Position numbers and translations under genes: made by a program. A stretch of DNA of 64,000 bases, taken from positions 304,550-368,549 of the IMG/VR virus record IMGVR_UViG_3300028676_000003, one strand, 5' to 3'. Numbering within the stretch: the first letter of the stretch is position 1; each line of letters opens with the position of its first letter. Below are positions 12,367 through 56,186 of the stretch, piece after piece. The DNA comes from a virus. The notes under the pieces are model-generated. The model did not search any database. It was given only the letters and a program-made list of their open reading frames with translations, and was not told the origin of the DNA.

Positions 12367-12375
12367 ATACCTTTG
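12345..12375 (+). promoter_or_regulatory. Bacteroidota-type promoter inside terminator
   Basis: TTG at 12345-12347 in the terminator loop, 20-base spacer, TACCTTTG at 12368-12375. Drives the NadM-Nudix gene. Confidence 0.82.
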
Positions 12376-12405
12376 CTCTATAATATTAACAAAACATATA
12401 AAAAA

Positions 12406-13422
12406 ATGGAAATTAAAACAGAACATAATCCTAAAGATTTTCAAGTTGGAGCGTTGGTTGGACGCTTTCACGTAGATGAATTACACATTGGTCACAGAGA
12501 ACTTATTGACCATGTTATCCAAAACCATAAAAAAGTAATTCTATTCTTAGGAGTTGCTAAAACAGTAGGTAGAAAAAATCCATTGGATTATGCCACTCGT
12601 AAAGCTATGATTCAGTTGGAATATCCTGATATCGTTATTCTTCCACTTGAAGATAAACGTTACAATACTGCTTGGGCCAGCAACTTAGACCATGCATTAA
12701 GCATTCCTTTCGGTGAGAAAAAAGCTCTTATTTATGGTAGCCGTGACTCATTCATTCCATCTTACAAAGAAGGAAAAGGTAGAAATAAAACCGTTGAATT
12801 AGAGCCAAGTGTTGACTATTCAGGAACTGCTGTAAGAGAAAAAATTGCTAGTGAAATAATTAATCATCCATTTTTTAGAGCTGGAATTATTTATTCAGTT
12901 TATGGTGAAAGAGCCAAAACGTTTCCAACAGTAGATATTTGTGCTTACAATGAGCAAGGACAAATCCTTTTGGCTAAGAAGCCTGATGAGAAGCTTTGGA
13001 GATTTGTTGGTGGATTCGTTGATAGAAATGATGGTTCTTATGAAATTGCCGCTAAACGTGAATTCTACGAGGAAACTGGTGGTGATGCCCGTTTAGGGGA
13101 AAAATTAAAATATATTTGCAGTCAAAGCGTTGATGATTGGAGATACCGTGATACAGAAAATGGAATCATGACAACTCTTTTCTTAGGTAGATATGCATTT
13201 GGACAAGCAGTTGCTTCAGATGATTTAGCAAATGGTGGTGACCTTCAATGGGTTGATATCAAAGATTTTAGTAATTTCGATGGAATTAGAACTAAAGTGA
13301 TGCCTGAACACAGAGACCTTATGACCAAATTGATTGATGCTGTTTACGAAGAAGGACTTATTCCAAACATTGGAACTAGACTTCCTGAAAGAGAAGGAAA
13401 TATCACGTATACTCAAGAGTAA
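12406..13422 (+). CDS. Bifunctional NMN adenylyltransferase / Nudix hydrolase (NadM-Nudix)
   Basis: 338 residues. Residues 1-170 carry the nucleotidyltransferase signature GRFHVDELHIGHREL (GxFxxxHxGH) and YSGTAVREKI (SGTxxR), as in NadM-type NMN adenylyltransferases. Residues about 190-300 hold a Nudix box starting at GGFVDRNDG and ending REFYEETGG, as in ADP-ribose pyrophosphatase domains. The first half makes NAD+ from NMN and ATP; the second would split ADP-ribose to AMP and ribose-5-phosphate. With the Nampt gene 1.3 kb on, it forms a two-step salvage from nicotinamide. ATG 12406 is used since the in-frame TTG lies in the promoter. Confidence 0.9.
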   Translation: MEIKTEHNPKDFQVGALVGRFHVDELHIGHRELIDHVIQNHKKVILFLGVAKTVGRKNPLDYATRKAMIQLEYPDIVILPLEDKRYNTAWASNLDHALSIPFGEKKALIYGSRDSFIPSYKEGKGRNKTVELEPSVDYSGTAVREKIASEIINHPFFRAGIIYSVYGERAKTFPTVDICAYNEQGQILLAKKPDEKLWRFVGGFVDRNDGSYEIAAKREFYEETGGDARLGEKLKYICSQSVDDWRYRDTENGIMTTLFLGRYAFGQAVASDDLANGGDLQWVDIKDFSNFDGIRTKVMPEHRDLMTKLIDAVYEEGLIPNIGTRLPEREGNITYTQE

Positions 13423-13446
13423 ATATAAACCAACTAAAAGAATCAT

Positions 13447-14064
13447 ATGAAAGTATTAGAATTACTTGGGATTAACCCAACAAAAGGAGAATTGGTTACA
13501 CTTACTGGTAAAACAGGACATGGAAGAACAAGTATGTTAGTTAAGATTGCTTGCGACTTGGCTAACGAAGGTAAGAGTGTATTGTTTATCAGCGATGAAT
13601 TAGCAATTCATCAAATAGCTGAAAAATGTACTCCATTATTAAAAATCGAGAACCCTAGATTTAAAGCTGTTAGAAGTGATTATCCAGTTGAAATTATTAC
13701 TGATTACTTCGCAGAAGAACAAGACATTGATGTTGTAGTTCTTGATGGTTACTTCGGTAACAAGACCAATTTCAGAGTTCTAGCGCAAAAACACGATACA
13801 TTAATCATAAATACAATTCAAATGAATAAAAGCGGATTTGTTACTGGAGATACAAGACCAATGATGACTTCTGATTGTGTAATTTCGGTTACAAGAATCA
13901 ATGGTAGCTTGACTTTATTGGATAAATTGAAAAATTTCTTCTTGTTTTGGAAACCTAAAAAAGTGGCTCCAAATACACAGTTGGCTTTGATTAAAAACCG
14001 TCATGGTAAACAAACGAAAACCGATATCAACTTCGATTTTCAAAGTTTACAAATAAAAAAGTAA
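13447..14064 (+). CDS. RecA/DnaB-like P-loop ATPase, Walker A variant
   Basis: 205 residues. TLTGKTGHGRTSML is a Walker A in which the usual GKT is GRT, after a lead of only about 18 residues, followed by VLFISDE and a Walker-B-like VVVLDGY. It resembles the ATPase core of RadA/DnaB/KaiC-type proteins, trimmed to one domain. Replacing the P-loop lysine by arginine normally cripples hydrolysis, so it may be a nucleotide sensor or regulator. It lies between the two NAD salvage genes along with another ATPase. Confidence 0.6.
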   Translation: MKVLELLGINPTKGELVTLTGKTGHGRTSMLVKIACDLANEGKSVLFISDELAIHQIAEKCTPLLKIENPRFKAVRSDYPVEIITDYFAEEQDIDVVVLDGYFGNKTNFRVLAQKHDTLIINTIQMNKSGFVTGDTRPMMTSDCVISVTRINGSLTLLDKLKNFFLFWKPKKVAPNTQLALIKNRHGKQTKTDINFDFQSLQIKK

Positions 14065-14071
14065 AAAAAGC

Positions 14072-14102
14072 TTGTACGGTAAGATATTTTGTTGTACCTT
14101 TG
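14072..14102 (+). promoter_or_regulatory. Bacteroidota-type promoter
   Basis: TTG at 14072-14074, 20-base spacer, TACCTTTG at 14095-14102, 18 bases before ATG 14121. Drives the ABC-type ATPase and Nampt. Confidence 0.82.
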
Positions 14103-14120
14103 TCATCTAAATAAAAAGAA

Positions 14121-14753
14121 ATGGACGAACATATTACTAGATTAGTTGACGTGATGGACACCATCAAACATGATGAAGTCACAATCCTAACTGGCCGAAA
14201 TGCTGGTGGGAAATCACTTATCAGAAAACAACTTGTTTTCCGTATTGCCAAAGCCCTAGATAAAGAACCTAAAAATGTCTTTATCCCAAGTGCTTCACAA
14301 GAGCTAAGAACCAAGTCACAGCCAAGTATGGGAGCATTGTCTTCTATTGGTCATGACTTAGAGTGGTTAGCTACTTCTGATAGTACTGTTCACAGCTTGG
14401 AGCAAGTATTCAAGTACCATACTGAAAAGGCAGACTATGTTATCATAGATGAACCTGAAATTGGTATTGGTGAAGAATTGCAATTAGGTATTGCTGATTA
14501 CCTTAATGAGGAAATCGCTAAGTTAAAAGCAATGGGTAAGGGTTGTTTGATTATCTGCCATAGCAGACTTATTGCTAAGAATGTAGTCCATGATACTTTC
14601 ATTAACTTGGAAGGTATGACTGAAGAGGAATGGTTAAATCGTGTTCCTCAAAAGATTTCAGTTGAAGATTTTAAAGCGTTTGCTACGGGATTATTCTCAG
14701 CAATCGGAGACAGAGAAAGAGAAAATAAAGAAAAACAAAAAGAACAAAACTAA
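14121..14753 (+). CDS. ABC/SMC-type ATPase domain protein
   Basis: 210 residues. Walker A GRNAGGKS at about 28-35, Walker B YVIIDEPEIG, and a switch histidine in LIICHSR are ABC-type features. A classical signature motif is not obvious. There are no membrane segments, so it is not a transporter by itself. It sits 1 base before the Nampt gene under the same promoter, so the two are almost certainly co-expressed. Its role with Nampt is unknown. Confidence 0.7.
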   Translation: MDEHITRLVDVMDTIKHDEVTILTGRNAGGKSLIRKQLVFRIAKALDKEPKNVFIPSASQELRTKSQPSMGALSSIGHDLEWLATSDSTVHSLEQVFKYHTEKADYVIIDEPEIGIGEELQLGIADYLNEEIAKLKAMGKGCLIICHSRLIAKNVVHDTFINLEGMTEEEWLNRVPQKISVEDFKAFATGLFSAIGDRERENKEKQKEQN

Positions 14754-14754
14754 T

Positions 14755-16338
14755 ATGAGCGGACAAAGAAACCTTGCTAGAAGATTAGAAAGAGCTATCA
14801 ACACTGGGAATATGGATGCTATTAAAGCAATGCAAACTCACTTGTTGAAGGTCCTTGTAAAACCACAAAACCTTATCCTAGCCTCAGATGGTTATAAATA
14901 CTCACACCACAGATTCTATGGTGCTGAAATGACCAAAATGATTTCGTATTGCGAATCAAGAGGTGGGAAATTCTCAGAGACCGTATTCTACGGCCTACAA
15001 ATATTCCTTAAACAATACTTAGAAGGAATCGCTATCACAACAGAAGAAATTGACCAAGCACAAGAAATCCTTGGTAGTCAATTAGGTATCTTCGGCCGTG
15101 ATGATGTATTCGACAGAAGCAAATTTGACTATATCGTTGAAAAACACGGTGGTAAGCTTCCAATCGCTATAAAAGCTGTTCCTGAAGGAACGGTTGTAAA
15201 TACCAAAAATGTATTATTCGTTATTGAGAGTCTTGACGATAATTGTGCATGGTTAACCAATTTCTTAGAAAGCCTTTTGCTTCAAGTTTGGTACCCAATT
15301 ACGGTTGCTACACTTTCAAGAGAAGTGAAAAAAATCGTATTGAAAGCGTTCAATAAATGCACATCTTATGATGAAGCAACTATTGATTTCCTTGTTCAAT
15401 TCGTATTAAACGACTTCGGATTCCGTGGAACGTCAAGCGTTCAGTCTGCCAGTGTTGGTGGTTCTGCTCACTTGGTTAACTTTAGAGGTTCTGATACCGT
15501 TGTTGCTAGTGACTTGATTAGAGAAATGTACAATACCAATACCGTTTACGGCTTAAGTATTCCTGCTACAGAACACTCTATTATGACACTTAAAGGTGAA
15601 GAAGGAGAGCTTGATATGATGAGAAGAGTACTTACAACATTCCCTACAGGACTTGTTGCTTGCGTATCTGATTCATACAATATCTTTAGAGCATGTTCTC
15701 AGTATTGGGGTCAAGACTTGATTGATTTAATCTTGAGCAGACCTGCGACACCTGGAAACCAACTAGTTATCCGTCCTGATTCAGGTCACGTAATCAGAAC
15801 ACTTAAGGAAATCTTTAGTATCTTGTTTGACAAGTTCGGTTATACAGTAAATGAAAAAGGTTACAAGGTATTGCCACCACAAGTACGTGTAATTCAAGGT
15901 GATGGTGTTAACTTAAACTCAATCATTGAAATTTACCAAATGCTTGAAGACGAAAAGATTTCTCCTGAGAACTTAGCGTTAGGTATGGGTGGTAAATTGC
16001 TTCAAGCTGATATCGATAGAGATACACAAAACTTTGCTACAAAGGCTTGTTCTGCTATCGTTGACGGTAAAAAGGTTGATATTATCAAGTCACCAACAGA
16101 AATGGATGCTGATGGTAACATCAGTCAATCATTCAAAAAATCTAAAAAAGGTGAACTTAAATTGGTCTTAAATGACGATGGAAGAACATACAGAACAGTA
16201 ACGTCATTAGACGCTGAGTATGACCACGTTAAAGATGAATTGGTTCCAGTTTTCAGAATGGGTGAAATCCTTGTTGACTATGGATTTGAAGAAATCCGTG
16301 AGAGAGCAAGGGTAAAAGACTACGAATTGGTAGCATAA
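14755..16338 (+). CDS. nadV: Nicotinamide phosphoribosyltransferase (Nampt/NadV family)
   Basis: 527 residues. Landmarks follow human NAMPT in order: NLILASDGYKYSHH, LNDFGFRGTSSVQSASVGG, SAHLVNFRGSDTV, the IPATEHSIM loop (position of the catalytic histidine), VSDSYNIFRA, VIRPDSGH, VIQGDGVNLNSI and LGMGGKLLQ. It joins nicotinamide and PRPP to make NMN. PRPP could come from the synthetase-like gene at 26104 and NMN would be used by the enzyme at 12406. An extra N-terminal 40 residues are helical and basic. ATG 14755 sits 1 base after the upstream stop. Phage Nampt-type enzymes are known to restore NAD+ against NAD-depleting defence; the closely related variant using ADP-ribose pyrophosphate is an alternative. 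Confidence 0.92.
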   Translation: MSGQRNLARRLERAINTGNMDAIKAMQTHLLKVLVKPQNLILASDGYKYSHHRFYGAEMTKMISYCESRGGKFSETVFYGLQIFLKQYLEGIAITTEEIDQAQEILGSQLGIFGRDDVFDRSKFDYIVEKHGGKLPIAIKAVPEGTVVNTKNVLFVIESLDDNCAWLTNFLESLLLQVWYPITVATLSREVKKIVLKAFNKCTSYDEATIDFLVQFVLNDFGFRGTSSVQSASVGGSAHLVNFRGSDTVVASDLIREMYNTNTVYGLSIPATEHSIMTLKGEEGELDMMRRVLTTFPTGLVACVSDSYNIFRACSQYWGQDLIDLILSRPATPGNQLVIRPDSGHVIRTLKEIFSILFDKFGYTVNEKGYKVLPPQVRVIQGDGVNLNSIIEIYQMLEDEKISPENLALGMGGKLLQADIDRDTQNFATKACSAIVDGKKVDIIKSPTEMDADGNISQSFKKSKKGELKLVLNDDGRTYRTVTSLDAEYDHVKDELVPVFRMGEILVDYGFEEIRERARVKDYELVA

Positions 16339-26103: not shown

Positions 26104-27078
26104 ATGTCACAATCAGTATTAGTATCACTTGACGGCCGTACAGAATTGGCCTTAAATATTATCAAAAGCGTTGCAAAACACTTTGGAGACCCAAACAATT
26201 ATGTCTTTTTAGACTTCGTTAATTCACAAAAATTCTCTGATGGAGAACTATGTGTGGATTATAAAAATTCTATTCGTGGAAAGCGAGTTTATATCCTTAC
26301 AAGTCCGAATACTTCAGACGAGATTATGAAAATGACTCTAGCGATAGATGCCGCTAAGAGAGCGGCCGCAAAGGAAATCATCGTAATTCTACCTTATTTC
26401 CCATATGCCCGTCAAGATAAAAAAGACCAAGCTCGTGGACCAATTGGAGCAACAATTATTTCAAAAATGATTCAAGTTCTTGGTGCTACAGGTATCATTA
26501 CATATGACTTACATGCTGACCAAATTCAAGGTTACTTTGATATTCCAGTAACTCACTTAGAAGGAAAGAATGTCTTTGATTCTTACATTGCTAAGATTGC
26601 TGATGAAGATACTGTTCTTTGTGGACCTGATGCAGGTTCTGCCAAGAGAGTTAAGAGAATGAAAGACCAATTACAAACATATCATAATACTTCACTTAAC
26701 ATTGTCATGTTAGACAAGAGCCGTAAAGAGGCAAATGTTATTGACGAAATGATTATCATTGGTGATGTAACTGGTAAGAACGTTATTATTGTTGATGATA
26801 TGGTTGATACCGCAGGGACACTATGTAAGGCGGCTGAGGTCCTAATGAATGCAGGTGCTAAGAGTGTAAGAGCCGTGATTAGTCATGGTGTTTTATCAGG
26901 TCCAGCTTATGATAGAATCGAAGCTAGTGTTTTAACTGAATTGGTTGTTAGTGATTCATTAGATGTTAAACCAAGTCCTAAGATTAAGGTAATTAGCGTT
27001 GAACAACAAATAGCATTTGCTATCTGTGCAATCAATAGTGATTCAAGTTATGAAGGACTAAGAAAAGAAAGATTCTAA
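26104..27078 (+). CDS. prs: Ribose-phosphate pyrophosphokinase-like enzyme (PRPP synthetase family)
   Basis: 324 residues, standard length. SQKFSDGELCV, LPYFPYARQDKKDQARGPIG (ATP and ribose-phosphate loops), TYDLHADQIQGYF, and the PRPP loop IIVDDMVDTAGTL are all present. Canonical role: ribose-5-phosphate plus ATP gives PRPP, the co-substrate of Nampt. In a recently described phage NAD+ rebuilding pathway, a PRPP-synthetase homologue instead makes ADP-ribose pyrophosphate. Sequence reading alone cannot distinguish the two. Phosphate product of the Nudix half at 12406 could feed it. Confidence 0.9.
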   Translation: MSQSVLVSLDGRTELALNIIKSVAKHFGDPNNYVFLDFVNSQKFSDGELCVDYKNSIRGKRVYILTSPNTSDEIMKMTLAIDAAKRAAAKEIIVILPYFPYARQDKKDQARGPIGATIISKMIQVLGATGIITYDLHADQIQGYFDIPVTHLEGKNVFDSYIAKIADEDTVLCGPDAGSAKRVKRMKDQLQTYHNTSLNIVMLDKSRKEANVIDEMIIIGDVTGKNVIIVDDMVDTAGTLCKAAEVLMNAGAKSVRAVISHGVLSGPAYDRIEASVLTELVVSDSLDVKPSPKIKVISVEQQIAFAICAINSDSSYEGLRKERF

Positions 27079-28701: not shown

Positions 28702-28883
28702 ACGTTGGAGATGAGGTAGTTAAGAATGAGGAGACCTGGATTCCGAATGATTTTGACTCTTGGGGTCGAGGTATCGGAATAGGAATCGTAGTTGAACCAC
28801 CGTTTCCTTTAGATGATGCTGTAGATGTTCGTTGGCCTGATGGTAGATGTTTTGAAGAAATAAACCAATTAATAAAAATATAA
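28686..28883 (+). CDS. Small SH3-like/KOW-type protein
   Basis: 65 residues. LNVGDEVVKNEETWIP ... GIVVEPPF ... VDVRWPDGR is the strand pattern of small SH3-like barrels. Overlaps the previous gene by 16 bases and the next by one. The fold assignment is tentative. Confidence 0.5.
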   Translation: MRSNLNVGDEVVKNEETWIPNDFDSWGRGIGIGIVVEPPFPLDDAVDVRWPDGRCFEEINQLIKI

Positions 28884-29674
28884 TGGGAAAAGTGAAATCA
28901 TTCAGCGACAGAATGAAAGAATATGAAAGCTGTTACAGTATCAAGGTACCGAACAGGTCATATATGATTGTCCGCTTGGATGGTGTAGGATTTAGCAAAT
29001 ACACCAAACAATTCGAGAAACCATTTGATGATATCTTGTCAAATGTAATGGATGCAACAGCAATTGAGCTGAGCAAAGCATTCAACCCTAAATTTGCTTA
29101 CACTCAATCTGATGAAATCAGTCTTGTTTTTACAACACTTGATAATATCGATGCCGAAATGATTTATGACGGTAAGATTCAGAAGATTGCTAGTATCTTC
29201 GCAGGTAAAGCCACTGCGGTATTCAATAAAAAGATGCTACAAATGCTTACTACTCTTAAGTATCGTGAAGACGAAATAATCGAAAAGATTAAAACAGTAG
29301 ACTTCAACGAGTTAGACGCATTTTTCGATGCAAGAGTATTCGTAATCCCTGACTTAACAGAGGTTTACAATTATTTTACTTGGAGACAGCAAGACTGTAC
29401 TCGTAATAGTATCAGTATGGCCGCTCATGCCCTTTTAAAAGGCAATATGACTGGTGTAAACGGTAAAGAGAAACAAGAAAGGCTATTTCAAGAAGCTGGT
29501 GTTAATTGGAACGATTACAAGACCAAGTATAAAAGAGGTACCGTTATTAAAAAATACGATTATACAATTGACGTTGAGGGTAGTGAATTACCTGCCAACA
29601 GAAGTAAATGGATTCCCGACTATGAGACTCCTATTTTTACTCAAGATAAGGAATATTTGCAAGCATTAATATAA
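28883..29674 (+). CDS. Thg1-like 3'-5' nucleotide-adding enzyme (tRNA repair)
   Basis: 263 residues. IVRLDGVGFSKYTK at about 29-42 (metal-binding Asp33), YTQSDEISLVF with Asp77-Glu78, and the long signature FDARVFVIPD then NYFTWRQQDCTRNSI are diagnostic of the Thg1/TLP family, which adds nucleotides to RNA 5' ends. Bacterial-type TLPs repair 5'-truncated tRNAs by templated addition. With the RNA ligase and end-healing enzymes this supports a tRNA-repair function. A tRNA-His guanylation role is less likely in bacteria, which encode G-1. Confidence 0.92.
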   Translation: MGKVKSFSDRMKEYESCYSIKVPNRSYMIVRLDGVGFSKYTKQFEKPFDDILSNVMDATAIELSKAFNPKFAYTQSDEISLVFTTLDNIDAEMIYDGKIQKIASIFAGKATAVFNKKMLQMLTTLKYREDEIIEKIKTVDFNELDAFFDARVFVIPDLTEVYNYFTWRQQDCTRNSISMAAHALLKGNMTGVNGKEKQERLFQEAGVNWNDYKTKYKRGTVIKKYDYTIDVEGSELPANRSKWIPDYETPIFTQDKEYLQALI

Positions 29675-39157: not shown

Positions 39158-39634
39158 ATGAATAAAGCAATAGAAATACAAGCTCCAAATCAAGTTCCAT
39201 TGACACATGGCCTATATGTGTTCTTAGGTGGTTCTATTGAAATGGGTAAAGCTATAGAATGGCAAAAAGAGGTTATTGAAACTCTTAAGGATGAAAACAT
39301 TGTGTTTTTAAATCCTCGTAGAGATGATTGGAACTCTGAATGGACCCAAACCATAACTGACCCTAACTTTAATGAACAAGTTACTTGGGAATTAAAAAGA
39401 TTAGAAGAATCTGACTTTATTGTTATGGTTATTGACCCAAACACTATCTCACCAATTACTCTTTTAGAGATTGGACTTCACGCTAGAAGCGGAAAGATGA
39501 TTGTTTGTTGTCCTGATGGGTTTTTTAGAAAAGGAAATGTTGATGTTACTGGACATTTTTATGGATATCCAGTTGTTGAAACACTAGAAGAAGTAATAGA
39601 AGCAATTCGTGAAAAATTAAATGGCAAAAAGTAA
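39158..39634 (+). CDS. Nucleoside 2-deoxyribosyltransferase-like protein
   Basis: 158 residues. YVFLGGSIEMGKAIEWQ, FLNPRRDDWNSEW, FNEQVTWELKRLEESDFIV and ITLLEIGLHARSG give the full domain, including the Asp and Glu expected in the active site. Same family as the gene at 19428. Likely acts on phage or host deoxynucleosides. Confidence 0.87.
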   Translation: MNKAIEIQAPNQVPLTHGLYVFLGGSIEMGKAIEWQKEVIETLKDENIVFLNPRRDDWNSEWTQTITDPNFNEQVTWELKRLEESDFIVMVIDPNTISPITLLEIGLHARSGKMIVCCPDGFFRKGNVDVTGHFYGYPVVETLEEVIEAIREKLNGKK

Positions 39635-43523: not shown

Positions 43524-45515
43524 ATGATTGAAATTAATGATATCCTACAAGGAAGAATTAGCGTTAATGCTAGTGGTTCTGCGTACTTGGTAAGCCCCGA
43601 TTTACCAAAAGACATTTATCTACACAAGTCTAACACTAACAAAGCGTTACACTTAGATACTGTAAAAATAAGAATAATTGAAGGTAAAGACAATAGTCGT
43701 AAACTTGAAGGTGAAGTAATAGAAATAGTTGAACGTTTTAGAACTGAGTTCGTTGGAGTAATCCAAATAAACGCTAAACATGCTTTCTTCATTCCTGATA
43801 GTAGAAAACTCATCAATGACTTCTTTATTCCAAAAGATAAATTGCTTGGAGCAACTGATGGACAAAAAGTAATTGTTAGACTTACTGAATGGAAAGACGA
43901 TGCCAAGAACCCTAACGGTGAAATTATCCGTATTCTTGGGAACGCTGGTGAACACGAAACTGAAATTCACGCTATCCTTGAAGAATATGGTTTACCATAT
44001 GACTTCGAAGAAGATGTACTTGCCGAAGCTAGAGCAATCCCTATTGAAATCCCACAAGCAGAAATTGACAAGCGTAGAGATATGCGTGATGTTATTACAT
44101 TCACTATCGACCCTGCTGATGCTAAGGATTTCGATGATGCTTTAAGTGTTGAATGGGTTAACGGTGAATTGTTCCTTGGTGTTCACATTGCCGATGTATC
44201 TCACTACTTAAGACCTGATACTGAATTAGATAAAGAAGCCTATGCAAGAGGAACAAGTGTTTATCTTGTTGATAGATGTGTGCCAATGCTTCCTGAGAAC
44301 TTATCAAACGGATTATGTTCGTTAAGACCACATGAAGATAAGTTATGTTTCTCAGCTGTATTCAAGTTGGACCATAACGGAAGTGTTCTTGAAGAGTGGT
44401 TTGGTAAAACAGTAATCAACTCTAATCATAGATTCTCTTATGAGCAAGCTCAAGAAATCATTGAAGCTGAAAAAGGTTCAACAACTCTTATTTACAAACC
44501 AAGAGGTAATGGTCCTTCAATAGGACCACACCACGAAGAAATTGCTAATGTTAACAAATGTTTCCAAGCAATTCGTGACTTGAACAAGATTGCTCAGAAG
44601 ATGCGTAAAGCTCGTCTTAAACATGGTGCCTTATCATTTGATAAACAAGAGGTTAAGTTTGACCTAGATGAAAACAATAAACCTATAGGTATCAAGTTTA
44701 AGACTGCTAAGGATTCTAACAAGCTTATTGAAGAATTTATGCTTCTAGCTAACAAGCATGTTGCACAATTCATCAATAAAAAGGAATTACCTAACGTAAA
44801 CAGGTCTCACGATAAACCTAACGAAGCTAAAGTAGAAGCTCTTAAGGAGTTTGTTAAGCAATTTGGGTATGAAGTGAAGAATTCTAGCCCTGAAGAGACT
44901 ACTAAGTCCCTTAATCAGTTGCTAAAAGACGTTAGAGGTACTGCCGAAGCTGATATGATTGATAATCTAGTAGTAAGAACAATGCAAAAAGCTACATATA
45001 GCACAAAAAACATTGGTCACTACGGTCTTGGGTTCAAAGATTACTCACATTTCACTTCTCCTATTAGAAGATATCCTGATGTAATCATTCATAGACTACT
45101 TGGAATGTATTTAGACACTGAAAGAGTATCTAAAACTGTTCCTAAGATAGAAAAGCTAGAAGGAAGATGCTTACATTTATCTGAAAGAGAGAAAAAAGCA
45201 CAAAAAGCGGAGCGTGATTCAATAAAATACATGCAATGTATCTATATGAGTGAGAATATTGGTAAGGTTTTCCAAGGAATTATCAGTTCTGTAACAGAAT
45301 ATGGTATTTTTGTAGAGATTTTAGAGAATAAATGCGAAGGACTTATCAAATTATCTAATATTGAAGGTGATGCTTATACAGTAGACATGAATAATTATAC
45401 TGTTAAAGGATATAACACTGGTAAAAAGCTTAGACTAGGTGATGTAGTACATGTAATTGTATCTAGTGTTGATATAGAGAAAAAAAATATCAATCTATCA
45501 TTGATTAATTTGTAG
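43524..45515 (+). CDS. rnr: RNase R-like 3'-5' exoribonuclease
   Basis: 663 residues. Two N-terminal cold-shock-type OB segments (DIYLHKSNTNKALHLDTV; FFIPKDKLLGATDGQKVIV), the RNB catalytic domain with the Asp cluster TIDPADAKDFDDAL (about 195-208), HIADVSHYL, MLPENLSNGLCSL and YSHFTSPIRRYPDVIIHR, and a C-terminal S1 domain (FQGIISSVTEYGIFVEI). It degrades structured RNA processively from the 3' end. In bacteria RNase R works with SmpB and tmRNA to remove nonstop mRNAs and all three parts appear in this window. It could also recycle host RNA. Confidence 0.94.
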   Translation: MIEINDILQGRISVNASGSAYLVSPDLPKDIYLHKSNTNKALHLDTVKIRIIEGKDNSRKLEGEVIEIVERFRTEFVGVIQINAKHAFFIPDSRKLINDFFIPKDKLLGATDGQKVIVRLTEWKDDAKNPNGEIIRILGNAGEHETEIHAILEEYGLPYDFEEDVLAEARAIPIEIPQAEIDKRRDMRDVITFTIDPADAKDFDDALSVEWVNGELFLGVHIADVSHYLRPDTELDKEAYARGTSVYLVDRCVPMLPENLSNGLCSLRPHEDKLCFSAVFKLDHNGSVLEEWFGKTVINSNHRFSYEQAQEIIEAEKGSTTLIYKPRGNGPSIGPHHEEIANVNKCFQAIRDLNKIAQKMRKARLKHGALSFDKQEVKFDLDENNKPIGIKFKTAKDSNKLIEEFMLLANKHVAQFINKKELPNVNRSHDKPNEAKVEALKEFVKQFGYEVKNSSPEETTKSLNQLLKDVRGTAEADMIDNLVVRTMQKATYSTKNIGHYGLGFKDYSHFTSPIRRYPDVIIHRLLGMYLDTERVSKTVPKIEKLEGRCLHLSEREKKAQKAERDSIKYMQCIYMSENIGKVFQGIISSVTEYGIFVEILENKCEGLIKLSNIEGDAYTVDMNNYTVKGYNTGKKLRLGDVVHVIVSSVDIEKKNINLSLINL

Positions 45516-45545: not shown

Positions 45546-46331
45546 ATGATTACTGAAGATACATTTATACTAGATTACTTAGAAAGAAACTTTATTGTTA
45601 GTACAAGCGAATACCACTATTATGTGACTGAAGCGATACCTCAACTAGAACTAAATAAAACATATACCTTTGCTACGTTCCAACAATACTATGAAAAGTT
45701 GTTTACCAAGTCTACTATGTATGTTTTCAATACATGGTTTGAACAGAAAACTAGTGCTTTAGTAAAGGAATTAGAAGACTACGTTGATACGCTTGAAAAT
45801 ACTGATGGTGGACTAGCTATGCTTGATAAGATTATCACTAGGTTTAAAAACCCAAATGGTGTTATTAAATATCATGATAGTTTTATTATGAATTTTTTCG
45901 ATAAGTACTACAGAAAAAAATGGCTTATACCAATGCTTAATGAGCTTAAGGAAACATTTCTTTCCTCACATGGAAAGAGTGCCAGCATGCTTGCAATCGT
46001 AGATAATAAGTTAGAATTCGATACAGAGAGACATAGAGACTATGCTTTCTCATACATAAATGAATGGTATTCAGATGAGATTCTCGGACAACAAATAACT
46101 GCGTTGTTCCGAGAATTTGTCGTTACACTAGGTGAGCGAAATTGGAAGATAACTTGGGTTGGTCATGGACCTGTAACCAAGGAAATAATCGAAGCTCATT
46201 TTAAAGATGAAACTGATTTTCAAAAGAAACTTGTAATGATGAAATTCAACCAATGGTACGAACTAGCAATCATTGAAGCCTCTGAAAGACAGATAAAACA
46301 CAATTTTAATACTGGTTTGTTTGGATATTAA
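45546..46331 (+). CDS. Hypothetical protein, 261 aa
   Basis: Helical, acidic, aromatic-rich; N-terminus (TFILDYLERNFIVSTSEYHY) resembles those at 40152 and 54091. No catalytic motif seen. Its end contains the -33 element of the next promoter. Confidence 0.58.
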   Translation: MITEDTFILDYLERNFIVSTSEYHYYVTEAIPQLELNKTYTFATFQQYYEKLFTKSTMYVFNTWFEQKTSALVKELEDYVDTLENTDGGLAMLDKIITRFKNPNGVIKYHDSFIMNFFDKYYRKKWLIPMLNELKETFLSSHGKSASMLAIVDNKLEFDTERHRDYAFSYINEWYSDEILGQQITALFREFVVTLGERNWKITWVGHGPVTKEIIEAHFKDETDFQKKLVMMKFNQWYELAIIEASERQIKHNFNTGLFGY

Positions 46332-46351
46332 AAAAACATTGTGTACCTTTG
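46321..46351 (+). promoter_or_regulatory. Bacteroidota-type promoter
   Basis: TTG at 46321-46323, 20-base spacer, TACCTTTG at 46344-46351, 20 bases before ATG 46372. Confidence 0.82.
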
Positions 46352-46371
46352 TAATCTAAATACTTAATAAT

Positions 46372-47364
46372 ATGTTTAAAGAAGTTAAAACAATTCAAAG
46401 TTCAGATGAGAATGTTATGAAGCTTGTTTTTGAAAAAGACAACGCTGTAGCTGAAGCAGTATTATACAAATATCCTACCTACGAAGAAAGAACAGTTATC
46501 TGTTGCTCAACTCAAAGCGGTTGTCCTGTAGGTTGTAGATTTTGTGGTGCAGGTGATTACTTCGTAAGGTCACTAAAAGCAGATGAGATAGTTTATCAAG
46601 TAGACTATTGTCTTGAAAGTCAAGGTATTGATGCTTCAAAAATTGAAAAGTTCCAAATCATGGTTATGTCAATGGGTGAACCCCTATTAAACTTCAAGGA
46701 GCTTGAAATCGCATTTGATATTCTTTATGCGAAATACCCTAATGCTAAGTTGCTTATTAGTTCAATCGGCCCACGTGTTGATTATGAACCAATCATGAAA
46801 ATGTGTGAAAGAATCCCTACTGTTGGATTACAATTCTCGGTTCATGAAAGCACTGATGAAAGCAGAGACAAGCTTATTCCTTTTAAAGCAAAATTAACTC
46901 TTAAAGAGATTTCTGAGGTTGGTGAGGTATTCCTAATCAGAACTGGAAGAAAGCCTTACTTCAACTATTGCGCTCACGAGCATAATTCTAGTGAAGAAGA
47001 TGCTAAAAGAATTGGTGAGTTGTTTAACCCTGATGTTTTCGAAGCAACCATTAGTGTTGTGTGTGAACGTGAGGAAAGCATTGCGGCCGCTAACGTAAGA
47101 CAAAGAGAGCTTGCAAGTACCTTTATGGATAATCTAAACAACTTAGGTTTCTCAACAAGAATGTTTGACCCAGCTGGTCAAGATGATATTGGTGGTGGAT
47201 GTGGTCAATTATGGTTTGTTCAATCTTGGATGGAACAGAATCAACACTTGGCTAAGAAGTCTGTAGGTTTTGGAATGGATGTTATTCATGCTCCTACTGC
47301 AACTAATTTGCTACAACAACAAATCCAAGAAGCTATTGCTGTTACTAACTCTTTAATTCAATAA
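46372..47364 (+). CDS. RlmN/Cfr-family radical SAM RNA methyltransferase
   Basis: 330 residues. The CxxxCxxC cluster motif is SGCPVGCRFC (Cys51, 55, 58), followed by VMSMGEPLLNFKE (SAM contact) and, near the end, DDIGGGCGQLW with the conserved acceptor cysteine at about 277. These are the defining parts of enzymes that methylate 23S rRNA A2503 at C2 (RlmN, also some tRNAs at A37) or C8 (Cfr, giving resistance to peptidyl-transferase antibiotics). The two cannot be told apart by eye. A phage copy may modify the ribosome or tRNA during infection. Own promoter. Confidence 0.88.
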   Translation: MFKEVKTIQSSDENVMKLVFEKDNAVAEAVLYKYPTYEERTVICCSTQSGCPVGCRFCGAGDYFVRSLKADEIVYQVDYCLESQGIDASKIEKFQIMVMSMGEPLLNFKELEIAFDILYAKYPNAKLLISSIGPRVDYEPIMKMCERIPTVGLQFSVHESTDESRDKLIPFKAKLTLKEISEVGEVFLIRTGRKPYFNYCAHEHNSSEEDAKRIGELFNPDVFEATISVVCEREESIAAANVRQRELASTFMDNLNNLGFSTRMFDPAGQDDIGGGCGQLWFVQSWMEQNQHLAKKSVGFGMDVIHAPTATNLLQQQIQEAIAVTNSLIQ

Positions 47365-47366
47365 AA

Positions 47367-48833
47367 ATGAATTTACTAGATAAACTAAAGAATTATTTTC
47401 TTTACGCTGATAAATACAAGACTGACTCAGAAGCAGTTATTATCGCATGTTACTTCAACCCACAAAACAATCCTTACAGACTTGAAGCTTTCAATAAGTT
47501 TTATGAGTCTATCAAGCACTTGAACCATCGTATCGTTGAATGTGTGATTGGTGACGCTATGCCACAATTACCTGTTACTCCGTCGATTGCAAGGGTTAAT
47601 ACCAAGGATTTGTTATGGCACAAAGAAGCACTTTTAAATGGTATTATCAAAACTCTACCTAAGAAGTTCAAGTATGTGTTTTGGTTAGATACTGATGTAT
47701 TATTTACCAATAATGATTGGCTTATCCAAGGTGTTGAAGAATTGAAATACAACAATATCATTCAACCATTTGAGTATTGTATTCACTTGGAAGAAGGAGA
47801 AACTAAGCCTAGTTTTGATGTTGCCTTTGAACGCAAGTTTGTTTCAAACCCTGCAATCAGACACCAAAGCATTTGGAGAAGCTTCTGTGCTAATCATCGT
47901 ACAACTGATTTCTCAGATGATACAAACTACGACAAGCACGGTCACGTTGGCTTCGCTTGGGGTGCAAGACGTGAAATCCTTGACAGCATGCCACTTTATG
48001 ATAAAGCACTTATCGGTGGAGCGGACCATATCATTGCTCATGCTTCGGCAGGTCAAATTGGTCACTCTTGTCTTATGAAGTCTTTTACTGAAGATATTGA
48101 TGCTGTTAACGAATGGTGTGAAGATTTTGATTTGCTTATCAATGGTAAGATTAGCTATGTTAAAGGTGACTTGTATCACTTATGGCACGGTGACGTTGCA
48201 AAGCGTCAGTATTTAAAACGTGTTCAAGAGTTTACACCAAAGGCCAAGAAGATTACTAAGAAAGACGAAAACGGACTCTATGTTGCTGACCAATTGGAAG
48301 GTGACAAATACGTTAACGAATACTTTGACCAACGTGAACCTAAGTTTCCAAAGGTTGATACTTCATTCGGTAAGTTATATCCACATGCTCAAGGGTTGCC
48401 AAGTCCAACATTTGATGAATTGATGAGAGAAAGAACTGAGAGATTATATGGCCCAAAAGATTCAAAAATAGAAATAAATAAACCTAAGAAGGAGAAATCT
48501 ATTGGTAGTCCATTTACCCGACCAACAAAACCAACTCATCCAAGACCCATAGATGCTAATATCTCACGTCAAGAATATGTTGAGATACCACAGGATGAAT
48601 TTGGTATTGACCTTACTGACTTTGTTGAAGCAATTATCATTGAAGAGGTTATTGATGATATTTTCAGTGACCCATCAACTGAGTTTGAAAACGGACAAAA
48701 CCAAGAAACTGGATTCGAAGATGGATTTGGTGGCGGTGGTTTCAGCGGTGGTGGTTCAGGTGGAGATTGGAATGAGCCAACACAAGATAATAACGATACT
48801 CAAGACTACACAAGTAGCGACAATTTTTCATAA
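47367..48833 (+). CDS. GT-A-type glycosyltransferase with disordered Gly-rich tail
   Basis: 488 residues. Residues about 20-290 form the GT-A domain: AVIIACYFNPQNNPYRLEA, the DxD-type metal site YVFWLDTDVLFTNND, HVGFAWGARREIL and LYHLWHGDV. The remaining 200 residues are polar and Pro-rich and end with GFGGGGFSGGGSGGDW. The tail resembles a flexible linker or phase-separating segment. Acceptor unknown; phage DNA, virion protein or host surface are possible. Two bases after the RlmN/Cfr gene. Confidence 0.75.
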   Translation: MNLLDKLKNYFLYADKYKTDSEAVIIACYFNPQNNPYRLEAFNKFYESIKHLNHRIVECVIGDAMPQLPVTPSIARVNTKDLLWHKEALLNGIIKTLPKKFKYVFWLDTDVLFTNNDWLIQGVEELKYNNIIQPFEYCIHLEEGETKPSFDVAFERKFVSNPAIRHQSIWRSFCANHRTTDFSDDTNYDKHGHVGFAWGARREILDSMPLYDKALIGGADHIIAHASAGQIGHSCLMKSFTEDIDAVNEWCEDFDLLINGKISYVKGDLYHLWHGDVAKRQYLKRVQEFTPKAKKITKKDENGLYVADQLEGDKYVNEYFDQREPKFPKVDTSFGKLYPHAQGLPSPTFDELMRERTERLYGPKDSKIEINKPKKEKSIGSPFTRPTKPTHPRPIDANISRQEYVEIPQDEFGIDLTDFVEAIIIEEVIDDIFSDPSTEFENGQNQETGFEDGFGGGGFSGGGSGGDWNEPTQDNNDTQDYTSSDNFS

Positions 48834-52224: not shown

Positions 52225-52381
52225 AGTAGTCACTACTGTAACAATCAGTCATATGCTTGATTTCATTGCAATCTTACCATCAACGGAAAGAAAGAGTCTT
52301 ACAGTTATTGCAGGTAGAGACACTTGGAAAATTGTAATCGATGCTGTTAATATAGGAATAATAACTAGAATAAAATACTAA
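52211..52381 (+). CDS. Possible small protein, 56 aa, non-ATG start
   Basis: An open frame from GTG 52211 (or TTG 52214) reads through to a stop overlapping the smpB ATG. It fills a gap that would otherwise be 156 bases in a genome with almost no gaps. Contains VVTTVTISHMLDFIAILPS and TVIAGRDTWKIVID. ATG only occurs 15 codons in. Confidence 0.4.
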   Translation: MLLGKVVTTVTISHMLDFIAILPSTERKSLTVIAGRDTWKIVIDAVNIGIITRIKY

Positions 52382-52821
52382 TGAAAAGCGTAGCTAAAAA
52401 CAAAAGAGCATATTTCGATTACGAAATTCTCGAAAAATATACAGCAGGGATTCAACTACAAGGTTCAGAAGTTAAATCAATCAAGGCTGGAAAAACATCA
52501 ATAGCTGAGGCTTATTGTTATGTCCACGAAGGTGAACTTTTCATCAAAGGAATGCATGTAACTGAACACAAAGAAGGCGGTAAGTACTATAATCACGAAC
52601 CTTTTAGAGATAAGAAGCTTCTTATGAAGAAGAAAGAAATCGCTAACTTGGACGAAAATGTTGGCCGTAAAGGCTTGACTATTGTACCACTTGACGTTAT
52701 ATTATCTAACACTGGTTTCGTAAAGATAGAAATTGGATTAGCTAAAGGAAAACATAATTATGACAAGCGTAACTCTTTGAAAGAGAAAGACTTGAAACGT
52801 GAAATTGAACGAAATTCGTAA
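52381..52821 (+). CDS. smpB: SsrA-binding protein SmpB
   Basis: 146 residues, normal length. NKRAYFDYEILEKYTAGIQL, LQGSEVKSIKAGKTSI, EAYCYVHEGELFIKGMHV, the DKKLLMKKKEI helix, KGLTIVPLDV and KIEIGLAKGKHNYDKR follow bacterial SmpB throughout, including the C-terminal KGK...DKR...KKDxKR tail (here SLKEKDLKREIERN) that reads the empty mRNA channel. SmpB delivers tmRNA to ribosomes stalled on truncated messages. A phage copy is unusual and, with RNase R and the tRNA-like RNA at 50259, suggests a phage-run rescue system. Confidence 0.95.
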   Translation: MKSVAKNKRAYFDYEILEKYTAGIQLQGSEVKSIKAGKTSIAEAYCYVHEGELFIKGMHVTEHKEGGKYYNHEPFRDKKLLMKKKEIANLDENVGRKGLTIVPLDVILSNTGFVKIEIGLAKGKHNYDKRNSLKEKDLKREIERNS

Positions 52822-53179: not shown

Positions 53180-54091
53180 ATGAAACAAATCAAAATTTCG
53201 CATAAACTTACTGATAGAAGTAACGAAGCTTTTAAACAATACTTAAGAGAAATTGCGGATATAGAACCTTTTACCCCTGAAGAAGAATTGGTTTGCGCTC
53301 AAAAAGCCTTTGCTGGTGATAAAAAAGCACAAAAAGAATTAGCGAAAAGAAACCTACGTTTCGTTGTGAGTGTTGCTAAGCAATACGTTACAGATTCTTT
53401 ATATCTATCTGACCTAGTGGAAGAAGGAAACATTGGAATCCTTATTGCGGCTGAAAAGTTTGACCCAAGCAAAGGATATAAGTTTATTTCGTTTGCTGTA
53501 TGGTGGATTAGAAAGATAATCCTTGAACACATTGCCAAGCATGGTAAGATTGTTCGTTTACCTGCCAATAAGCTTAACGCAATGTCAAAGCTTGATAAAC
53601 AATTTGCAGAATTGGAACAAAAGACTGGTCGTAAGGTAGATGTAATGGAAGTTATTGCCGAGTTTGGTAGCAACTCCGATGCCTACAATACCCAACAAGA
53701 CGAGTTTAAGGAGTTTATGTTCTTGGATTCATTAGGTTCAATGAACACAGATTCGCTAGACCGTCAGATTGGTAATGAAGACAACGGTGGAACTAGTACC
53801 CTTGCTGAGATGATGAGTGATGATATGTTTAAATCTACAGACCACTTAATCACAGACAAGAACATCATCGATGAAATCAATATTGCTCTTGAAACACTTA
53901 AGCCTCGTGAGAAGAGAATCATTGAATCATTCTTTGGTTTAAATGACCAAAAGGTTATGACACTTAAGGAATTAGGTGAAGATGATGGAATCAGAGTAAC
54001 ACGTGAAATGGTTCGTCAAATTAAAAATAAGACGCTTAAAGCGTTACAAAATAATCCTAGGATTAGACAAGCATATGAGTCAATGAACTAA
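53180..54091 (+). CDS. Sigma-70 family RNA polymerase sigma factor (RpoD/SigA-like)
   Basis: 303 residues, close to the Bacteroidota housekeeping sigma (about 285-290). Region 1.2 (FKQYLREIADIEPFTPEEE), region 2 (NLRFVVSVAKQYV, LVEEGNIGILIAAEKFD, FISFAVWWIRKII), region 3 (IVRLPANKL) and region 4 with its HTH (LKPREKRIIESFFGL, TREMVRQIKNKTLKAL) are all there. Such a factor would recognise the same TTG/TAnnTTTG promoters found before many genes here. It could keep host polymerase on phage promoters after the host sigma is displaced. Confidence 0.95.
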   Translation: MKQIKISHKLTDRSNEAFKQYLREIADIEPFTPEEELVCAQKAFAGDKKAQKELAKRNLRFVVSVAKQYVTDSLYLSDLVEEGNIGILIAAEKFDPSKGYKFISFAVWWIRKIILEHIAKHGKIVRLPANKLNAMSKLDKQFAELEQKTGRKVDVMEVIAEFGSNSDAYNTQQDEFKEFMFLDSLGSMNTDSLDRQIGNEDNGGTSTLAEMMSDDMFKSTDHLITDKNIIDEINIALETLKPREKRIIESFFGLNDQKVMTLKELGEDDGIRVTREMVRQIKNKTLKALQNNPRIRQAYESMN

Positions 54092-55211: not shown

Positions 55212-56186
55212 ATGGCAAAGATACTTACTGGTATTCAAAGTACTGGAACACCACACTTAGGCAATCTATTAGGTGCTATTATTCCCGCTATTGAACTATC
55301 GAATAACCCTGATAATGAATCTTATTTATTCATTGCTGATTTACACTCAGTTACACAAATTAAAGATGGTGAAACCCTTAGAGAAAATACCTTTAGTACT
55401 GCCTGTGCTTGGTTAGCTTGTGGTTTGGACCCAAATAATGTTACCTTTTACAGACAATCAGATGTTCCTCAAACTACTGAACTAAATTGGTATTTGAATT
55501 GTTTCTTTCCATATCAACGATTAAGACTAGCTCATTCATTTAAAGACAAATCTGATAGGCTTGAAGATGTTAACGCTGGATTATTCACATATCCAATGCT
55601 TATGTCAGCTGATATCCTTTTATATGATGCTGAGATTGTTCCTGTTGGTAAGGACCAATTACAACATTTAGAGTTTACACGTGATGTAGCTACCAAGTTT
55701 AACCATCAAATGGGTGAAACTTTTGTTATACCTAGACCTAATGTTCAAGGAGAGACACAGACAATCATAGGTATAAATGGTTCTAAAATGAGTAAATCAG
55801 CCAACAATACTATCAACATATTCGCCAGTGATAAGGATTTATATAAACAAATCATGAGTATTGAAACTGATAGTACACCACTTGAAGAACCTAAGAACCC
55901 TGATACTTGTAATGTATTTAAATTATGCTCATACCTTGCAAGTGAGGAAGAACTTGAATCGCTTAGATTCAAATATTTAGCAGGTGATTATGGTTATGGG
56001 CATGCAAAAAAATATTTATACATTCTTATACTTATGAAATTTGAATCAGAAAGAGAAAAGTATAATTATTATATCAATAATCCTGATGTTGTTAATAATT
56101 TGTTATTAGAAGGAGCTGAAAAAGCTAAGCTAGTTGCCAATACTACACTAGGAAGAGTTAGAGAAAAATTAGGTTTTAACAAATAA
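55212..56186 (+). CDS. trpS: Tryptophanyl-tRNA synthetase
   Basis: 324 residues, full bacterial length. The HIGH equivalent is GTPHLGN at about 12-18, then FIADLHSVTQ, TYPMLMSADILLYDA, VPVGKDQLQHLEFTRD, and the KMSKS loop GSKMSKSANNTI at about 190. The C-terminal helices that bind the anticodon end are present. It charges tRNA-Trp. Full-length synthetases are rare in phages. It may secure Trp-tRNA supply or resist host synthetase inactivation. Own promoter; probably leads a short operon. Confidence 0.96.
   Translation: MAKILTGIQSTGTPHLGNLLGAIIPAIELSNNPDNESYLFIADLHSVTQIKDGETLRENTFSTACAWLACGLDPNNVTFYRQSDVPQTTELNWYLNCFFPYQRLRLAHSFKDKSDRLEDVNAGLFTYPMLMSADILLYDAEIVPVGKDQLQHLEFTRDVATKFNHQMGETFVIPRPNVQGETQTIIGINGSKMSKSANNTINIFASDKDLYKQIMSIETDSTPLEEPKNPDTCNVFKLCSYLASEEELESLRFKYLAGDYGYGHAKKYLYILILMKFESEREKYNYYINNPDVVNNLLLEGAEKAKLVANTTLGRVREKLGFNK

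What the first reader, a model, noticed from the sequence alone, without database searches (positions are those of the whole stretch)
46372..47364. Phage-encoded RlmN/Cfr homologue
All radical-SAM and acceptor cysteines are conserved. Methylating A2503 of 23S rRNA, or tRNA A37, during infection would change ribosome behaviour, and a Cfr-type activity would also give antibiotic resistance.
Basis: partly seen in the sequence, partly recalled or inferred. Interest (0 to 1): 0.75.

Follow-up and report, generated by a model that had tools for sequence, protein, structure and literature searches.

The report
NAD-linked RlmN-like phage radical enzyme
A giant phage carries a cut-down cousin of the ribosome-modifying enzymes RlmN and Cfr that keeps their chemistry but lost their N-terminal domain, and its relatives repeatedly sit inside NAD-making gene clusters, so it probably modifies an NAD-type small molecule rather than ribosomal or transfer RNA.

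Summary
The ORF at 46372-47364 (330 aa) is real, intact and phage-borne. It keeps all the catalytic residues of the class A radical-SAM methylases RlmN and Cfr (CxxxCxxC, both relay cysteines, the general-base Glu). It is neither RlmN nor Cfr. It scores far below both curated cut-offs, falls outside the RlmN+Cfr clade with full support, lacks the whole N-terminal helical domain (E. coli residues 1-78), and is acidic. Of 17 bacterial genomes with a homologue, 16 also have a true RlmN. The family (here "F1"; at least 172 viral and 30 bacterial loci) is genomically tied to NAD metabolism. NAMPT/NadV lies within 5 kb in 14 of 26 virus records (2.4 expected; control gene 2 vs 1.7). NAPRTase and NUDIX lead an unbiased neighbour scan. 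In bacteria F1 lies in operons such as NAPRT-PncA-F1-NrtR and in a chromosomal cluster NadD-NadE-F1-NrtR-PnuC-NAPRT. The window's own phage carries NAMPT, NMNAT-Nudix and PRPP synthetase. Best explanation: a Cys-relay C-methylase of an NAD-family metabolite, probably part of phage NAD-based counter-defence. The substrate is inferred, not shown. RNA methylation is not excluded. Cfr-type resistance has no support.

The parts
46372..47364 (+). F1 gene: RlmN/Cfr-like class A radical-SAM enzyme without N-terminal helical domain (330 aa)
46453..46455 (+). E28, equivalent of E. coli RlmN E105 (general base for the methyl-carrier Cys)
   Evidence: alignment; invariant; role from PMC9692996
46501..46503 (+). 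C44, equivalent of resolving Cys C118 of RlmN / C105 of Cfr
   Evidence: alignment; invariant
46522..46545 (+). CxxxCxxC [4Fe-4S]-binding motif (C51, C55, C58)
46969..46971 (+). C200 in F1-specific NYC motif (E-Y-V in E. coli RlmN)
47062..47070 (+). C231-E232-R233: F1-specific VCE motif; R233 aligns with N312, the Asn shared by RlmN and Cfr, and is R, S, A or K in relatives
47200..47202 (+). C277, equivalent of methyl-carrier Cys C355 of RlmN / C338 of Cfr, in GQDDIGGGCGQL
   Evidence: alignment; invariant
12373..13422 (+). NMNAT-Nudix (NadM-type) gene of the same phage: second step of NAD salvage
   Evidence: NUDIX E 1e-14; CTP_transf_like E 0.0016, 19.1 bits against a cut-off of 21
14641..16338 (+). 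NAMPT/NadV gene of the same phage: first step of NAD salvage
   Evidence: NAPRTase E 7e-41 and NAMPT_N E 1e-26
26104..27078 (+). PRPP synthetase: supplies the NAMPT co-substrate
   Evidence: Pribosyltran_N E 2e-29
39158..39634 (+). Nuc_deoxyri_tr2 protein; same family recurs beside F1 in other phages

Best explanation
The gene encodes a member of a distinct phage-centred family (F1) of class A radical-SAM enzymes. Proposed mechanism, carried over from RlmN: one SAM methylates C277, a second SAM is cleaved at the 4Fe-4S cluster, the methyl-Cys becomes a CH2 radical, it adds to an sp2 carbon of a substrate ring, and C44 deprotonates the adduct to release the C-methylated product. The substrate is most likely a free NAD-family molecule (adenine of NAD+/ADP-ribose or of a precursor, or the pyridine ring), not rRNA or tRNA, so F1 works as an accessory of phage and bacterial NAD salvage. 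The likely benefit is a chemically altered NAD pool or derivative that defence NADases or their signals handle poorly. SHOWN here: gene, catalytic residues, missing N-terminal domain, separate clade, strong linkage to NAD genes. INFERRED: methylation itself, the exact substrate, and the counter-defence benefit.
For: Relay residues E28, C44, C51/C55/C58 and C277 are invariant. AF2 model (pLDDT 87, pTM 0.85) matches RlmN 5hr6 at Z 28.2 over 278 residues, starting at E. coli residue 79. NadV/NAMPT is within 5 kb of F1 in 14 of 26 virus records having both (2.4 expected), all 14 on the same strand; ribonucleotide reductase control is 2 of 23 (1.7 expected). NadV is in 14 of 15 F1-bearing records of at least 200 kb against 33% of jumbo phages in a published survey (PMC9503650). 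Neighbour scan of 227 proteins: NAPRTase 13, NAMPT_N 11, NUDIX 10, CTP_transf_like 5; no unrelated family shown above 2 in either half. 19 of 65 groups have an NAD-biosynthesis gene within 4.5 kb, in differing gene orders and at scattered places in the F1 tree. Operons: L041 NAPRT-PncA-F1-NrtR with 1-base overlaps; L081 Nudix-NadE-F1-NMNAT-isochorismatase/PncA-like; L050/L168 chromosomal cluster NadD-NadE-F1-NrtR...PnuC...NAPRT.
Against: Neighbourhood only; no biochemistry. 44 of 65 groups show no NAD-related gene within 4.5 kb, many of them in temperate-phage early regions. In the window itself F1 is 30 kb from NAMPT. In Stenotrophomonas phages F1 lies among tRNA genes. NAD genes are common in jumbo phages, so a shared 'metabolic island' could add to the linkage. 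The charge argument is weak, as the Cfr core is also acidic.
Confidence: 0.5

Rival explanations
1. F1 is a phage RNA methylase after all: it makes m2A (or m8A) in tRNA A37, 23S A2503 or a phage RNA, and the NAD neighbours reflect a shared counter-defence or metabolic island.
For: The nearest characterised relatives all act on RNA adenines. F1 sits among tRNA genes in ANB28 and BUCTxx99. The catalytic core is conserved.
Against: The N-terminal helical domain is lost in all members compared. 16 of 17 genomes already have RlmN. Translation genes are not enriched next to F1, while NAD genes are. RlmN/Cfr-shared N312 is not kept.
Confidence: 0.2
2. F1 acts on an NAD-derived group attached to a macromolecule (NAD-capped RNA, or ADP-ribosylated RNA, DNA or protein), working with PARP, macro and NADAR proteins.
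For: L068 carries WGR-PARP, F1 and NADAR, with a macro-like protein directly after F1; macro or NADAR genes occur in 5 groups.
Against: NAD biosynthesis genes are far more frequent neighbours than ADP-ribosyl erasers (19 groups against 5).
Confidence: 0.12
3. F1 does non-methylating radical chemistry on an NAD-pathway molecule (for example rearrangement, adduct repair or ring modification).
For: F1-specific conserved residues (C200, C231, N198, Q154) differ from RlmN/Cfr.
Against: Both methyl-relay cysteines and the general-base Glu are strictly kept, which a non-methylating enzyme would not need.
Confidence: 0.12

Closest known systems
RlmN (dual-specificity 23S A2503 / tRNA A37 C2-methyltransferase), class A radical-SAM methylase
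   Same: Radical-SAM core, CxxxCxxC, C118/C355/E105 equivalents, DIxxxCGQL motif; AF2 model Z 28.2 to 5hr6
   Different: No N-terminal helical domain (E. coli 1-78), 101 of 290 bits, separate clade, N312 not conserved, acidic, NAD gene context
Cfr (23S A2503 C8-methyltransferase, antibiotic resistance)
   Same: Same catalytic relay; best PDB sequence hit 9p0p (E 1e-20); model Z 20.2
   Different: About 85-90 bits against cut-offs of 468-550; Cfr groups with RlmN and away from F1; no N-terminal domain; Cfr-conserved Asn missing
Phage NAD+ salvage / reconstitution (NadV + NadM; NARP2)
   Same: The window's phage encodes NAMPT, NMNAT-Nudix and PRPP synthetase; F1 is a frequent neighbour of this pathway in other phages
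   Different: No radical-SAM component is mentioned in the papers read; F1 is not needed for the known route nicotinamide to NMN to NAD+
F2: short phage RlmN-like proteins (Moorella MTATph1, Vibrio D479, crAss-like tikkala, Pectobacterium Arno162)
   Same: Radical-SAM motif and GE motif, no N-terminal domain
   Different: F2 lacks both relay cysteines, so cannot use the RlmN mechanism; F1 keeps both

Membership tests
Class A radical-SAM methylases (RlmN/Cfr superfamily) | CxxxCxxC radical-SAM motif | tested here: met
   C51/C55/C58 invariant; Pfam Radical_SAM over cut-off
Class A radical-SAM methylases (RlmN/Cfr superfamily) | Two relay cysteines (C118 and C355 equivalents) and general-base Glu (E105) | tested here: met
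   C44, C277, E28 invariant in 35 relatives
Class A radical-SAM methylases (RlmN/Cfr superfamily) | Methyl transfer to an sp2 carbon through methyl-Cys | not testable with these tools
   needs biochemistry
RlmN | Curated equivalog score (TIGR00048, cut-off 290 bits) | tested here: not met
   101.4 bits
RlmN | N-terminal helical domain (PF21016) | tested here: not met
   no match in the whole record; upstream ORF ends 40 bases before the start; model residue 1 aligns with E. coli 79
RlmN | Phylogenetic placement with RlmN | tested here: not met
   F1 separated from RlmN+Cfr by a 100/100 branch
RlmN | Methylates 23S A2503 / tRNA A37 at C2 | not testable with these tools
   needs mass spectrometry
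Cfr | Curated Cfr scores (cut-offs 468-550 bits) | tested here: not met
   85-90 bits
Cfr | Groups with Cfr in a tree | tested here: not met
Phage NAD+ salvage (NadV/NadM, NARP2) | NAMPT/NadV and NMNAT (NadM) genes in the same phage | tested here: met
   window 14641-16338, and 12373-13422 whose NUDIX is over cut-off while its NMNAT domain is just under
Phage NAD+ salvage (NadV/NadM, NARP2) | F1 as a working component of the pathway | tested here: inconclusive
   strong linkage across relatives, but 30 kb apart in this phage; no assay

The most novel reading that the evidence does not exclude
F1 C-methylates NAD+ itself (adenine C2 or C8, or the nicotinamide ring), giving phages and some bacteria a chemically disguised NAD that defence NADases (TIR, SIR2) or their ADP-ribose signals cannot use. 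It would be the first class A radical-SAM methylase acting on a free cofactor and a new chemical layer of NAD-based counter-defence.
Probability: 0.28. Interest if true: 0.93.

Novelty: new variant of a known kind. Interest (0 to 1): 0.72.

Why it matters
The only class A radical-SAM methylases characterised in the papers read, RlmN and Cfr, act on RNA. A widespread family that keeps the full relay, drops the N-terminal domain and lives in NAD operons predicts an unknown modified NAD metabolite and a new step in the NAD arms race between bacteria and phages. It also warns against annotating such phage genes as RlmN or Cfr, or as resistance genes.

Tried and rejected
Cfr-type resistance: rejected on family scores and tree. 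Chance or pseudogene: rejected on purifying selection and conserved catalytic residues. A missing N-terminal domain encoded elsewhere in the record: PF21016 found nothing. F1 as a replacement for a host lacking RlmN: 16 of 17 F1-bearing bacterial genomes have RlmN; the exception is a 1.0 Mb Saccharibacteria genome that may be incomplete. A general metabolic-island effect: the ribonucleotide reductase control shows no excess, though only one control gene was run. An early reading that E. coli N312 corresponds to E232 was corrected from alignment A2: it is R233. A reading of F2 as methylases was dropped, as F2 lacks both relay cysteines. Isochorismatase over whole virus records was nearly absent (2 of 37), so PncA linkage rests mainly on bacterial loci and L081. 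The literature searches found no paper linking a radical-SAM or RlmN-like protein to NAD salvage. The library holds only open-licence papers, so a report elsewhere is possible.

Full report
WHAT IS THERE. The ORF at 46372-47364 (+) is 330 codons with an ATG start and no in-frame interruption. The window is the last 64 kb of a 368,549-base virus record. The protein matches Pfam Radical_SAM (E 7e-9). Its nearest curated families are RlmN (101 bits) and Cfr (85-90 bits), far under their cut-offs of 290 and 468-550. It is under purifying selection.

CATALYTIC PARTS. Aligned with E. coli RlmN and two Cfr proteins, it keeps the CxxxCxxC motif (C51, C55, C58), the resolving cysteine (C44 = C118), the methyl-carrier cysteine (C277 = C355) in a DIxxxCGQL setting, and the general-base glutamate (E28 = E105). 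All are invariant over 35 diverse relatives. The roles of these residues in RlmN are taken from the review PMC9692996. F1 adds its own invariant residues (N198-Y199-C200, C231, Q154). It does not keep the asparagine that RlmN and Cfr share (N312): the window has R233, and relatives have R, S, A or K.

WHAT IS MISSING. The N-terminal helical domain is absent. RlmN_N (PF21016) has no match in the whole record, the upstream gene ends 40 bases before the start, and the AlphaFold2 model (pLDDT 86.9, pTM 0.85) aligns with RlmN 5hr6 (Z 28.2, rmsd 3.0 over 278 residues) from E. coli residue 79 on. F1 proteins are acidic (window pI 4.9, median 5.6), while RlmN proteins here range from 6.3 to 8.8; the Cfr core is also acidic, so this is weak evidence.

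PLACEMENT. A tree of 62 F1 representatives, 18 RlmN or RlmN-like, 2 Cfr and 4 short F2 proteins puts RlmN and Cfr together and F1 (with F2) on the other side of a fully supported branch; Cfr sits nearer RlmN than F1 does (some long branches meet, so the F1-F2 join is unsure). Of 17 bacterial genomes with F1, 16 also carry a true RlmN. So the protein is not an RlmN or a Cfr; it is a third lineage with the same relay.

DISTRIBUTION. In phage records F1 occurs in Stenotrophomonas, Vibrio, Salmonella and Aeromonas phages and a 462-kb uncultured phage. Scans gave 172 viral stretches that encode relatives (80 kept) and 30 loci in bacterial assemblies, several of them prophage-like (RecT, YqaJ-type exonuclease and phage replication genes as neighbours). 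The 128 loci fall into 65 groups at 80% identity.

NAD CONTEXT, STATISTICS. In 37 representative records with F1, NAPRTase/NadV is present in 26. It lies within 5 kb of F1 in 14 of these (2.4 expected under random placement), all 14 on the same strand; the control, ribonucleotide reductase, lies within 5 kb in 2 of 23 (1.7 expected). Among records of at least 200 kb, 14 of 15 have NadV, against 33% of jumbo phages in a systematic survey (PMC9503650; binomial p 2e-6, a comparison across different data sets). An unbiased Pfam scan of the two genes on either side of F1 in the groups with enough flank (227 proteins) returned NAPRTase 13, NAMPT_N 11, NUDIX 10 and CTP_transf_like 5 as the leading families, with NAD_synthase, NrtR and NADAR also present. 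With profiles made from these neighbours, 19 of 65 groups have an NAD-biosynthesis gene within 4.5 kb, and 21 if macro and NADAR are counted.

NAD CONTEXT, EXAMPLES. Orders differ, which argues against one inherited cassette: NMNAT-F1-NAMPT (L108, L098, L064), NMNAT-NAMPT-F1 (L078, L113), NadA-NMNAT-NAMPT-F1 (L072), Nudix-NadE-F1-NMNAT-isochorismatase (L081), PARP...F1-macro-like...NADAR (L068). In bacteria: NAPRT-PncA-F1-NrtR with one-base overlaps in Ornithinimicrobium (L041), NAPRT and PncA divergent to F1 in a Saccharibacteria assembly (L030), and a Clostridiaceae contig carrying RNase E/G, Hsp33 and peptidyl-tRNA hydrolase genes, with NadD, NadE, F1, NrtR, PnuC and NAPRT in about 13 kb (L168). 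The window's own phage has NMNAT-Nudix (12373-13422), NAMPT (14641-16338) and PRPP synthetase (26104-27078), with NAMPT 30 kb from F1.

INTERPRETATION. Retained relay plus lost N-terminal domain plus NAD operons suggest a class A C-methylase of a free NAD-family molecule. Adenine of NAD+ or ADP-ribose is the natural analogue of the RNA adenine; an electron-poor pyridine ring is an equally plausible radical acceptor in principle. NAD depletion is a common phage defence and NAD reconstitution a known phage answer (PMC12774641), so a modified NAD pool that escapes NADases is the most attractive benefit; this step is inference. RNA methylation remains possible: the known relatives act on RNA, and in two Stenotrophomonas phages F1 lies among tRNA genes.

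VERDICT ON THE FINDING. Observation confirmed. 'RlmN/Cfr homologue' is right at superfamily level; A2503/A37 methylation is not supported and Cfr-type resistance has no support. The NAD linkage appears new in the literature that could be searched, and trapping the substrate on a C44A mutant would decide the question.

Noticed in passing
L018:2830-3651, L019:2830-3672, L020:2854-3639, L021:2890-3762: A second phage RlmN-like family (F2; Moorella, Vibrio D479, crAss-like and Pectobacterium phages) keeps the radical-SAM motif but lacks both relay cysteines, so it must do different chemistry.
   Followed up: partly
window 12373-16338: Phage NAD salvage pair: NMNAT-Nudix fusion and NAMPT, with a PRPP synthetase at 26104-27078.
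   Followed up: yes
window 43524-45515: Phage RNase R-like protein (RNB, cold-shock and S1 domains, 663 aa), two genes upstream of F1; matches phrog_13933.
   Followed up: no
window 28883-29674, 52381-52821, 55212-56186: Translation/RNA genes in the same phage: Thg1-like tRNA guanylyltransferase, SmpB and a class I (W/Y) tRNA synthetase, while ARAGORN finds no tRNA or tmRNA in the window.
   Followed up: no
window 53180-54091: Sigma-70 family factor (regions 1.2, 2 and 4) encoded by the phage.
   Followed up: no
window 47367-48833: 488-aa protein starting 2 bases after F1, no Pfam or PHROGs match; its N-terminal part looks glycosyltransferase-like by eye.
   Followed up: no
L068:1472-6207: Phage cassette with a WGR-PARP, F1, a macro-like protein and NADAR: both writer and erasers of ADP-ribose next to F1.
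   Followed up: partly
one neighbour in alignment A4, locus not resolved: A gene within two of an F1 matches Tad6, a type I Thoeris inhibitor, hinting at a counter-defence setting.
   Followed up: no
window 46326-46371: A/T-rich stretch before F1 with no Shine-Dalgarno-like sequence; together with the low GC (34%) this could suggest a Bacteroidota host.
   Followed up: no
OR529408.1 (L017:2992-3951): The F1 gene of phage BUCTxx99 is annotated 'prohibitin family protein', apparently a misannotation.
   Followed up: no
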